Of a stretch of DNA of 55,453 bases, positions 27 to 32,107 are shown one piece after another. Origin of the DNA: a bacterium (lineage in GTDB: Bacteria > Cyanobacteriota > Vampirovibrionia > Gastranaerophilales > Gastranaerophilaceae); assembly GCA_017471365.1 (NCBI GenBank), contig JAFUUC010000038.1, positions 1-55,453 of the forward strand, in the 5' to 3' direction. The first letter of the stretch is position 1. The number at the start of each line of letters is the position of its first letter. The position numbers and the translations under genes are program-made. The notes under the pieces were generated by a model that saw only the letters and a list, made by a program, of their open reading frames with translations, ran no database searches and was not told where the DNA came from.

Positions 27-39
27 AAGATTGATAAAG

Positions 40-114
40 ATCCTGAAACAGCCCTGCATACAGGCTCACACGTCCTCGCTCCGCTGCGGCGGTTCGCTTT
101 GTAAAGTTCAGGAT
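40..114. repeat. Hairpin element with inverted ends (family A)
   Basis: The segment is bounded by the 8-bp inverted repeat ATCCTGAA (40-47) and TTCAGGAT (107-114). Its interior reads CACACG..CGCT..CGGTTCGCTTTGTAAAG. A very similar interior sits between inverted arms beside tRNA-Leu (31951-32050), and a looser relative lies beside tRNA-Arg (51555-51639). I infer a small non-coding repeat family; no coding capacity is visible. Confidence 0.55.
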
Positions 115-140
115 GACAAGTATTGTGGATCAAGAAAAAC

Positions 141-30448: not shown

Positions 30449-31645
30449 ATGAAAGATTTCGATAGTTTTGGTTATACTTGTTTGTTTGGTGGTGGAGCCA
30501 TCAGAGGAGCGGCTCATGTTGGTGTTATAAAGGCTTTAGAAGAATTTGGTATTGTCCCACGTGTGTATGGCGGTTCGTCGGTTGGATCGATAATCGCTGC
30601 TTTATATGCTGTTGGATATAGTTATGACGAGTTGGCTGAAATATTTTTGTCTGTGAATTTTGAATTGTTTAGAGATCTTTCTTTGGGTTTTTCTCAAAAA
30701 TTCGCACTTAGTAAGGGCGAAGTATTTTTGAATTGGTTGAGGGAACTAATAGAAAAGAAATTTTATAAAGATCAAAATAGTAATAATAAACCGGTAAGAT
30801 TTAAAGATATAGATAAAAATCTTATTATAATAACCACTGATATGAAGGATTTTAGTTGCAGGGAATTTTCTACGTTTGCGACACCGGATTTTGAAATTGC
30901 GATGGCTGTCAGAATTTCTTGCTGTATGCCCGGGCTTATGCGTGCAGTGAGTCTTGATGATAGATTGCTTGTCGATGGTGATTTAATGAAAGGTAAGCCA
31001 ATGTGGTCTCTTTCAGAAAACCTTAAAAATTCTAATAATAGAATTTTAGAAATAAGGTTAGAGGGTACTTTTTCTGGATCCGATAAAAATCCAATAGAAT
31101 ATGTTAATGGTATGTACAGTTGCATGACTTCGTCAGAAACAGATTTTGTCCGTAGTATTTATCAAGACAATGATATGTATGATTATCTTGTTGTAAATAC
31201 TGGCGAGGTTGTAGTCGTGGATTTTAATTATCCTGTTGATAAGCGTCAGTGGATTATTAATGAAGGTTATAAGCAAACTGTTGAGTACTTTACGAAGGTT
31301 CTGCCTGCTAAAAAATATAGATTAAGAGAAGTATATTTGAGAATTTTAGATAAATTACGTAAAGTACAGGAAGCAATGCTGCGTAAACGTTACAATTTAG
31401 CAAAGAGTGTTATAGGTGAGTTGTTTATATGTTTGTCTGATTGTAGAAGTATAATTGATCCCGATGTTTATTCAGAAATTTCTAATTTCCAAAAAGTATT
31501 ATTTGATAATGTTACTTGTGGGTTGTTGGGATATACCAATTGCAAGAATAAAAATTATGTTTTTAATTTGTTAAAAAGCTCTATTTCTGGTATTTCAGAT
31601 AGAATTATTGAATTTGATCATTATTTGGCAAAATTTCCTGTTTGA
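30449..31645 (+). CDS. Patatin-like phospholipase
   Basis: This 398-aa protein has the oxyanion-hole motif [12 protein letters not shown] (about 13-24), the nucleophile elbow GGSSVGS (GxSxG, about 40-46) and the dyad aspartate in [12 protein letters not shown] (about 170), the bacterial form of the DG(A/G) motif. It would hydrolyse acyl esters of phospholipids. There is no signal peptide; the C-terminal 150 residues are helical and unassigned. No Shine-Dalgarno is seen; a TAGAAT lies 9 nt before the ATG. The stop codon overlaps the -35 box of the tRNA-Leu promoter. Confidence 0.9.
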
Positions 31646-31670
31646 CAATAGTTTCTGTTTATAATAAGAT
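31642..31670 (+). promoter_or_regulatory. Candidate promoter of the tRNA-Leu locus
   Basis: TTGACA (31642-31647) and TAAGAT (31665-31670) are spaced by 17 nt. It would start transcription near 31677, 147 nt before tRNA-Leu, so the primary transcript would contain the degenerate tRNA copy at 31697-31800. Confidence 0.5.
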
Positions 31671-31696
31671 GATATAGTTCCGGAGATTTCTGGTTC

Positions 31697-31800
31697 TGAC
31701 AATTAAATAGATTATGCTCCAGTGGCACTCTGCCGACGAGGAAGATTGATTATCTTCCGAGGAGAGGCGGTAGACGCCGTTAGAGAGCAAAGCGATCTAA
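31697..31800 (+). pseudogene. Degenerate partial copy of tRNA-Leu 5' half
   Basis: The 30 nt at 31697-31726 (TGACAATTAAATAGATTATG, then CTCCAGTGGC) repeat the 31 nt that lead into and begin the functional tRNA (31804-31834). A second matching piece, CGGTAGACGC near 31769, corresponds to the tRNA D-arm. Between them lies about 42 nt with a hairpin (GGAAGAT/ATCTTCC). A further small stem (GTTAGA/TCTAAC) ends the segment. It looks like a tRNA-Leu copy disrupted by an insert and lacking its 3' half. Confidence 0.6.
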
Positions 31801-31823
31801 CTTTGACAACTGAATATAATTAT

Positions 31824-31910
31824 GCTCCAGTGGCGGAATCGGTAGACGCGTTGGACTTAAAATCCAATTGGGCGTATAACCCAGTGCCAGTTCAAGTCTG
31901 GCCTGGAGCA
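31824..31910 (+). tRNA. tRNA-Leu(UAA)
   Basis: The 87-nt class II tRNA has acceptor GCTCCAG/CTGGAGC, D-arm with GGTAGACGCG, anticodon stem TTGGA/TCCAA around loop CTTAAAA (anticodon UAA), a long variable arm and T-loop GTTCAAGTC. Discriminator A follows the acceptor; CCA is not encoded. The gene is continuous: the group I intron found in this tRNA in many cyanobacteria is absent. Confidence 0.95.
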
Positions 31911-31963
31911 AGTATAAAGAGATCTTCGTATGAGGGTCTTTTTTTTTGAGCCAGACTTTCCTT
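31894..31963 (+). repeat. Direct repeat copy 1: tRNA-Leu 3' end plus terminator
   Basis: This stretch comprises the T-arm/acceptor end of tRNA-Leu, its terminator and a short tail ending ACTTTCCTT. It is repeated at 32041-32107 with the first 19 nt identical. The two copies flank a hairpin-rich insert of about 77 nt. Confidence 0.8.
31920..31947 (+). terminator. Terminator of tRNA-Leu
   Basis: AGATCTT and AGGGTCT-type pairing, including G-T pairs, form a short stem followed by nine T residues. It starts 10 nt past the tRNA. Confidence 0.75.
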
Positions 31964-32050
31964 CCAGTTCAGCTACGGGGGCAAGCCCCCTACGCATACA
32001 AGTTCACACGCTTCGCCTTAGCTCAGCGGTTCATTTTGTAAAGTCTGGCC
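31951..32050. repeat. Hairpin element with inverted ends beside tRNA-Leu (family A)
   Basis: Perfect 10-bp arms GCCAGACTTT and AAAGTCTGGC bound the element. Inside lie the hairpin GGGGGCAAGCCCCC (31977-31990) and the family core CACACGCTTCGCC...CGGTTCATTTTGTA, shared with 40-114. The right arm is also the T-arm end of the duplicated tRNA fragment. Confidence 0.65.
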
Positions 32051-32107
32051 TGGAGCAAGCATAAAAATATCCTCATACGAGGGTATTTTTTCGATCATAC
32101 TTTCCTT
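32041..32107 (+). repeat. Direct repeat copy 2: tRNA-Leu 3' end plus terminator
   Basis: This second copy contains 17 nt of tRNA-Leu 3' end and its own terminator (32067-32091: ATATCCTC/GAGGGTAT plus T-run). Base changes relative to copy 1 are compensatory in the stem, so the hairpin shape is conserved. Confidence 0.8.

What the first reader, a model, noticed from the sequence alone, without database searches (positions are those of the whole stretch)
31697..32107. tRNA-Leu(UAA) flanked on both sides by broken copies of itself with hairpin inserts
Upstream, 31697-31726 repeats the tRNA 5' lead-in and acceptor start, with a D-arm fragment further on and an insert between. Downstream, 31894-31963 is repeated at 32041-32107: 17 nt of tRNA 3' end plus terminator, around an IR-ended insert. 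The second terminator keeps its stem by compensatory changes. This could be a decayed tandem tRNA array targeted by small elements, or an attachment-site-like duplication from integration and excision. The leader could also affect tRNA processing.
Basis: partly seen in the sequence, partly recalled or inferred. Interest (0 to 1): 0.7.

Follow-up and report, generated by a model that had tools for sequence, protein, structure and literature searches.

The report
Hairpin repeats lodged in tRNA-gene copies
In a gut relative of cyanobacteria, an intact leucine tRNA gene is flanked by broken pieces of itself that carry tiny hairpin-shaped repetitive DNA elements; the same elements occur across related species at many tRNA genes and inside pilin genes, and look like an undescribed variety of very small mobile DNA that leaves an intact copy of the gene it lands beside.

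Summary
The window comes from a Gastranaerophilales-type genome (Cyanobacteriota). tRNA-Leu(UAA), 31823-31911, is preceded by a tRNA 5' half whose D-loop is replaced by a ~41-nt hairpin element, and followed by a tRNA 3' half whose T-loop holds a second hairpin element, with a second terminator. Both inserts are dispersed repeats (28 and about 30 copies in this genome). The D-loop element has a fixed frame (CTCTGCCGA...GAGAGG) around a freely covarying stem; it occurs in all 85 family members sampled from the phylum and none of the 109 other genomes. In relatives it lies upstream of tRNA-Leu, Met, Val, Pro, Ile, Lys, Thr and Ala, and the half-tRNA matches the tRNA beside it. The syntenic Leu locus is empty in 11 of 20 genomes and holds one to three units in nine. 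Elsewhere the element sits in REP-like palindromes and in frame in prepilin leader regions. Best reading: a palindromic mobile repeat, behaving like Rickettsia palindromic elements, retained where an intact gene copy survives. Neither a decayed tRNA array nor an ordinary att duplication fits, and a tuned RNA switch is not supported by shuffle controls. The mobilising enzyme is unknown.

The parts
31642..31670 (+). sigma-70-like promoter (TTGACA, 17 nt, TAAGAT), upstream of both tRNA copies
   Evidence: consensus scan; same place in relatives
31694..31709 (+). boxA-like leader motif, copy 1 (TTCTGACAATTAAATA)
   Evidence: sequence; same motif ahead of tRNAs in relatives; the boxA reading is from memory
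31715..31726 (+). tRNA-Leu 5' half copy (acceptor 5' strand and start of D-arm)
   Evidence: repeat D3; local-tRNA match test
31727..31767 (+). family-1 hairpin element (ACTCTGCCGA-stem-loop-GAGAGG) in place of part of the D-loop
   Evidence: covariance model R1 hit 31725-31767, 64.7 bits, E 5.8e-14
31768..31778 (+). D-arm 3' part of the tRNA copy (CGGTAGACGCC)
   Evidence: junction analysis
31779..31801 (+). variable linker hairpin
   Evidence: sequence and fold
31802..31816 (+). boxA-like leader motif, copy 2 (TTTGACAACTGAATA)
   Evidence: sequence
31823..31911 (+). intact tRNA-Leu(UAA)
   Evidence: ARAGORN and Rfam
31916..31948 (+). first terminator, 12-bp stem and T-run
   Evidence: fold
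31950..31958 (+). inverted piece of the T-arm (GCCAGACTT)
   Evidence: sequence; similar inverted T-arm pieces at other tRNAs of this genome
31964..31971 (+). T-arm 5' strand copy (CCAGTTCA)
   Evidence: sequence
31972..32040 (+). family-2a hairpin element inside the T-loop copy
   Evidence: matches the dispersed repeat (31990-32044, E 4.5e-7); same element in tRNA-Leu and fMet trailers and REP-like palindromes of relatives
32041..32059 (+). tRNA 3' half copy (T-arm 3' strand and acceptor 3' strand)
   Evidence: repeat D1
32063..32092 (+). second terminator, 12-bp stem kept with one two-sided and two one-sided changes
   Evidence: fold, repeat I1

Best explanation
Two families of very short palindromic (hairpin-forming) mobile DNA repeats have inserted at this tRNA gene: one in the D-loop of an upstream partial copy of the tRNA, the other in the T-loop of a downstream partial copy. 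Each insertion comes with a duplication of one tRNA arm plus its outward flank (leader, or terminator), and the element lies in the outer copy, so the copy joined to the tRNA body stays intact. Shown here: the anatomy, the dispersed-repeat nature of both inserts, the covarying stem, the match of each half to its local tRNA, and empty and filled states at the syntenic site. Inferred: that the elements move or moved as DNA with an enzyme supplied in trans; that the duplication arises during insertion or its repair; and that selection keeps only events that leave an intact tRNA. The inserts end up in parts removed during maturation (tRNA leader and trailer, prepilin leader region), which would make them nearly harmless.
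For: Family 1: 28 places in this genome, all 85 family members and 0 of 109 other genomes in a phylum sample, also three other genomes of the order with strong matches. 8 of 10 stem pairs change on both sides, covariation above all 500 shuffles and all slid versions. 156 units upstream of 13 tRNA types, half-tRNA tracks the local tRNA. More than one insertion point, even within one locus. Syntenic Leu(UAA) locus: 11 empty, 7 single, 1 double, 1 triple; 3' unit in 5 of 20. Other contexts: REP-like palindromes, in-frame prepilin leader regions, near-identical copies in one relative inside a composite palindrome. Family 2a: about 30 copies here, also in a REP-like palindrome loop. Seven of 40 tRNAs of this genome have a 3'-half copy, each with an insert.
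Against: No mobilising enzyme identified: a REP-associated tyrosine transposase is present but Y1 transposases do not follow element number across genomes. No strain-level insertion was seen, so present-day movement is not shown. No classical target-site duplication; instead 4-7 nt of target are missing and a long flank is repeated. The site between D-arm and anticodon arm in tRNA-Ile is not a hairpin loop. One same-genus genome (G010) gave no match. Most multi-tRNA loci were fetched with the element pattern, so the coupling of half copies with inserts (62 of 65) is partly ascertainment; only the own-genome survey and the 20 Leu loci are free of it.
Confidence: 0.8

Rival explanations
1. The flanking units are functional RNA: the upstream half-tRNA with its hairpin is a leader element that controls folding or processing of the tRNA (a switch or attenuator), perhaps together with the downstream half, which could pair with it around the tRNA.
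For: Conserved frame and covarying stem. In folding predictions the mimic strand takes the tRNA 3' strand when transcription stops at the first terminator, and the native tRNA returns when the downstream unit is included. 68% of 87 units favour mimic pairing.
Against: Shuffled inserts give nearly the same result (mimic 0.63 vs 0.57, native 0.18 vs 0.16). Units are absent from 11 of 20 orthologous loci and vary in number. The same elements sit in pilin genes and palindromes. Upstream and downstream units occur independently.
Confidence: 0.1
2. Remnants of tRNA-targeting integrative elements (phage or ICE) that deleted down to their att sites.
For: A displaced tRNA 3' half with terminator beside an intact tRNA is the usual mark of such integration (PMC9897764).
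Against: No integrase or cargo in any unit. The 5' half with leader is duplicated too. A T-arm 5' strand is also copied and separated from the 3' strand by the insert. The inserts are dispersed repeats, not tRNA-bound. No match in viral contigs.
Confidence: 0.05
3. Decay of an old tandem array of full tRNA genes.
For: Tandem upstream units exist (L014, L026, L029-L031).
Against: No relative shows two full tRNA-Leu(UAA) genes at the 20 syntenic loci. Units keep only one arm and carry the same repeat element at many unrelated tRNAs.
Confidence: 0.03

Closest known systems
Rickettsia palindromic elements (RPE)
   Same: Palindromic dispersed repeats found in frame in protein genes and also in RNA genes (tmRNA, M1 RNA) (PMC2229807, PMC3767692).
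   Different: About 41-43 nt core instead of 100-150 bp; another phylum; tRNA halves beside an intact tRNA; partial duplication of the target; no sequence comparison with RPE was made.
REP palindromes with RAYT transposases
   Same: Short palindromes in many copies; a RAYT gene flanked by its own palindromes is present in this genome.
   Different: The element frame ACTCTGCCGA...GAGAGG bears no GTAG-type tag and differs from the palindromes around the RAYT gene.
tRNA fragments left by integrating phages and ICEs
   Same: Partial tRNA copy beside an intact tRNA (PMC9897764).
   Different: Insert of roughly 40-100 nt without genes, in both 5' and 3' halves, from repeats found genome-wide.
Hairpin-forming mobile repeats of organelles and small dispersed repeats of cyanobacteria
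   Same: Tiny hairpin repeats that invade genomes and each other (sponge mitochondrial hairpin elements, PMC2800124, title and abstract only; cyanobacterial SDR from memory).
   Different: No sequence link tested; the tRNA-arm duplication is not part of those descriptions as far as I know.

Membership tests
Rickettsia palindromic elements | palindromic, dispersed, able to sit in frame in ORFs | tested here: met
   covarying stem; 21 of 28 counted instances of this genome lie in an ORF of at least 60 aa, 16 with a prepilin FTLAE motif (a few loci overlap)
Rickettsia palindromic elements | length 100-150 bp | tested here: not met
   core 39-49 nt
Rickettsia palindromic elements | sequence kinship with RPE families | not tested
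   no RPE sequence was compared
REP/RAYT | GTAG- or CGTC-tagged palindrome | tested here: not met
   aligned ends are ACTCTGCCGA and GAGAGG
REP/RAYT | RAYT gene in the genome, tracking the repeats | tested here: inconclusive
   RAYT present here (NF047646, 129.9 bits over cut-off 80), but Y1 transposases found in only 11 of 26 genomes without relation to element number
MITE | terminal inverted repeats and short target-site duplication | tested here: not met
   only a 4-bp CTCT/AGAG end pairing; target nt lost, not duplicated
Integrative element att duplication | integrase gene or cargo between intact tRNA and fragment | tested here: not met
   units are 110-180 nt
Known structured RNA (Rfam) | match to a curated family | tested here: not met
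   no match but the tRNA itself at gathering level; nothing meaningful up to E 10
Cyanobacterial small dispersed repeats (SDR) | sequence relationship to Nostoc SDRs | not tested
   recalled from memory; the primary paper was not found in the library

The most novel reading that the evidence does not exclude
A gene-sparing kind of insertion not described before: a palindromic element whose insertion step itself duplicates one end of the target gene (tRNA arm with leader or terminator; prepilin start), so that an intact gene is rebuilt beside the insert, and whose copies then accumulate in segments removed by RNA or protein maturation.
Probability: 0.3. Interest if true: 0.78.

Novelty: new variant of a known kind. 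Interest (0 to 1): 0.62.

Why it matters
Small palindromic repeats are common in bacteria, but how most of them move and avoid harm is open. Here one family is seen at 13 tRNA types with empty, single and tandem states, each time beside an intact copy of the gene. The same core lies in prepilin leader regions, where a repeated gene-start motif is visible in half of the ORFs examined. This makes a concrete idea testable: elements persist where maturation removes them and where insertion (or its repair) duplicates the target end. It also warns that tRNA fragments in such genomes need not mean phage integration.

Tried and rejected
Rfam scan at gathering level and at E up to 10: nothing but the tRNA. 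Viral contigs: no match for the family-1 pattern. Tuned tRNA switch: the predicted competition is reproduced by shuffled inserts. General inverted copy of the acceptor strand in the linker: weak overall (3.90 vs 3.55 nt), clearest for Leu-GAG and Met. Exact 5-nt replacement of the target: only approximate, 4-7 nt. Reverse transcriptase as mover: none found in this genome. RAYT as mover: present but not correlated. Strict insertion into hairpin loops: most sites fit, but the tRNA-Ile site lies between D-arm and anticodon arm. First alignment of cores with mixed lengths misaligned the 3' side and was replaced by equal-length sequences.

Full report
WHAT WAS CHECKED. The window holds one intact tRNA-Leu(UAA), 31823-31911. 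Neither fragment is recognised as a tRNA or another Rfam family. The two terminators each fold as 12 bp. By direct comparison one pair differs on both sides (G-C to U-A) and two on one side, so the compensatory claim holds, modestly.

ANATOMY. Upstream the order is: leader, tRNA positions 1-12, hairpin element ACTCTGCCGA-stem-loop-GAGAGG, D-arm 3' part of the tRNA, variable linker, leader again, whole tRNA. Downstream it is: terminator, an inverted T-arm piece, T-arm 5' strand, second hairpin element, T-arm 3' strand and acceptor strand, second terminator. So a tRNA 5' half has an insert in its D-loop and a tRNA 3' half has an insert in its T-loop.

THE UPSTREAM INSERT IS A DISPERSED REPEAT. 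Searching relatives showed the insert near other tRNAs. Most record titles are Gastranaerophilales, Melainabacteria or uncultured bacterium; a few read Fusobacterium, Heliobacteriaceae, Clostridia or Acinetobacter, which I take to be misnamed bins. A 43-nt covariance model shows 8 of 10 pairs of the main stem changing on both sides, with a covariation score no shuffle reached. The outer CTCT/AGAG pairs and the fixed frame cannot count as evidence there, because the search pattern fixed them. The model finds 28 places in this genome, and matches all 85 genomes of the same family and none of the other 109 in a phylum sample. That search used strict filters and scored at most 33 candidates per genome, so high counts are lower bounds. 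A more sensitive search also found three strong and one weak case in other families of the order, and one same-genus genome without any match.

tRNA CONTEXT. After removal of identical copies, 156 units lie upstream of a tRNA: Leu (four anticodons), Met, Val-GAC, Pro (three), Ile-GAT, Lys-CTT, Thr-GGT, Ala-GGC. The 16 nt before the element share on average 9.75 consecutive nt with the first 16 nt of the local tRNA, against 4.24 with tRNAs of other types. Units occur in tandem. The insertion point is after about position 11-12 in most, about 18 in some Val, Lys, Thr and Pro cases, and 26 in Ile; 4-7 nt of tRNA are usually missing at the junction. Two insertion points at one Thr and one Lys locus mean that the event happened more than once.

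EMPTY AND FILLED SITES. In 20 genomes of the genus the Leu(UAA) locus was fetched by the window's locus sequence, which the tRNA itself dominates. In 18 of them a homologue of the patatin-like gene of the window (Pfam Patatin) lies beside it; the other two loci are cut by contig ends. Eleven have no upstream unit, seven have one, one has two and one has three; five have the downstream unit. None of the eleven empty loci shows an exact 5'-half copy. The wider count (62 of 65 half copies carry the element) is biased, because most of those loci were fetched with the element pattern.

DOWNSTREAM UNITS. All 40 tRNA genes of this genome were surveyed. Only Leu(UAA) has an upstream half with the element. 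Seven (Lys-CTT, Tyr, Gly-CCC, Leu-UAA, Glu-CTC, Leu-UAG, Ser-GGA) have a 3'-half copy 134-179 nt downstream, each with an insert. Several of these inserts share another motif (GAGCAGAGGCTG...); the one at Glu contains the family-1 element in reverse orientation. The window's downstream insert belongs to a repeat with 38 matches in this genome, about 30 of which cover the element itself; it is also found inside a REP-like palindrome.

OTHER CONTEXTS. Family 1 also lies in REP-like palindromes and within ORFs: 21 of 28 counted instances in this genome (a few loci overlap) fall in an ORF of at least 60 aa, 16 of them with a type IV prepilin-like FTLAE motif. In 9 of 18 prepilin-like ORFs a second FT-type start motif lies further upstream, as if the gene start had been duplicated around the inserts. 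This parallels the tRNA case but was judged with a loose motif. One relative carries many near-identical copies, most of them inside a larger composite palindrome, consistent with recent spread.

MECHANISM. Most likely these are non-autonomous palindromic mobile repeats. The duplication of one arm plus its outward flank could be made by the insertion step or by later unequal recombination, with selection keeping only arrangements in which the body of the tRNA stays intact. For an upstream unit the copy next to the body is the second; for a downstream unit it is the first; in both, the element sits in the other copy. tRNA leader, tRNA trailer and prepilin leader are all removed on maturation, which would make such sites tolerant (inference). 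The mover is unknown: a REP-associated tyrosine transposase is present here with its own palindromes, but Y1 transposases do not follow element number, and no reverse transcriptase was found here.

DOES IT AFFECT THE tRNA? By thermodynamic folding the upstream mimic would win the tRNA 3' strand in a transcript ending at the first terminator, and native folding would return with read-through into the downstream unit. Mimic pairing exceeds 0.5 in 68% of 87 units. Shuffling the insert changes this little (mimic 0.63 observed, 0.57 shuffled; native 0.18 and 0.16). So the competition is mostly a generic cost of duplicating the 5' half, and equilibrium folding ignores co-transcriptional processing. 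It is not evidence of a switch.

KNOWN KINDS. Rickettsia palindromic elements are nearest in behaviour: palindromic, in frame in protein genes, and also in tmRNA and M1 RNA genes (PMC2229807, PMC3767692). Length and lineage differ and sequence kinship was not tested, so no membership is claimed. The REP end tag is absent; MITE-type ends and target-site duplication are absent; att-type integration (PMC9897764) would need integrase and cargo, which are lacking. Verdict: a new variant of a known kind.

LIMITS. The genomes are largely metagenome-assembled; many copies lie at contig ends; no expression data or strain-level comparison was available; the literature library covers open-licence papers only, so an earlier description elsewhere cannot be excluded.

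Noticed in passing
L197-L220 (this genome, several contigs): Prepilin-like genes carry long in-frame N-terminal extensions built from strings of palindromic repeats ahead of the FTLAE motif; in about half, a broken gene start precedes the repeats, like the tRNA halves.
   Followed up: partly
L253:1477-2004 (contig C1 of this genome): A RAYT gene (NF047646 over cut-off) flanked on both sides by palindromes of the type TGTAGGTTGGGCATACCTGCCCAACA; the following folC-like ORF seems to start inside such a palindrome.
   Followed up: partly
window 35-115: Another copy of the family-2a repeat lies at the very start of the window contig.
   Followed up: no
L222, L223, L228, L249, L263 (tRNA-Lys, Tyr, Gly, Leu-UAG, Ser trailers): 3'-half tRNA copies with another insert type (GAGCAGAGGCTG...AAGACA) preceded in several cases by an inverted T-arm copy.
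   Followed up: partly
L195/L196 (tRNA-Glu trailer): The family-1 element sits in reverse orientation in a tRNA-Glu 3'-half copy, and a near-identical unit lies about 1.8 kb away on the same contig.
   Followed up: no
L020 and L026 downstream of tRNA-Leu: The first terminator looks degraded while the one after the 3'-half copy is intact, so the unit is probably transcribed as part of the trailer.
   Followed up: no
G064 (L267-L286): One relative has at least 33 copies of family 1, many identical, inside a composite palindrome: a likely recent burst.
   Followed up: partly
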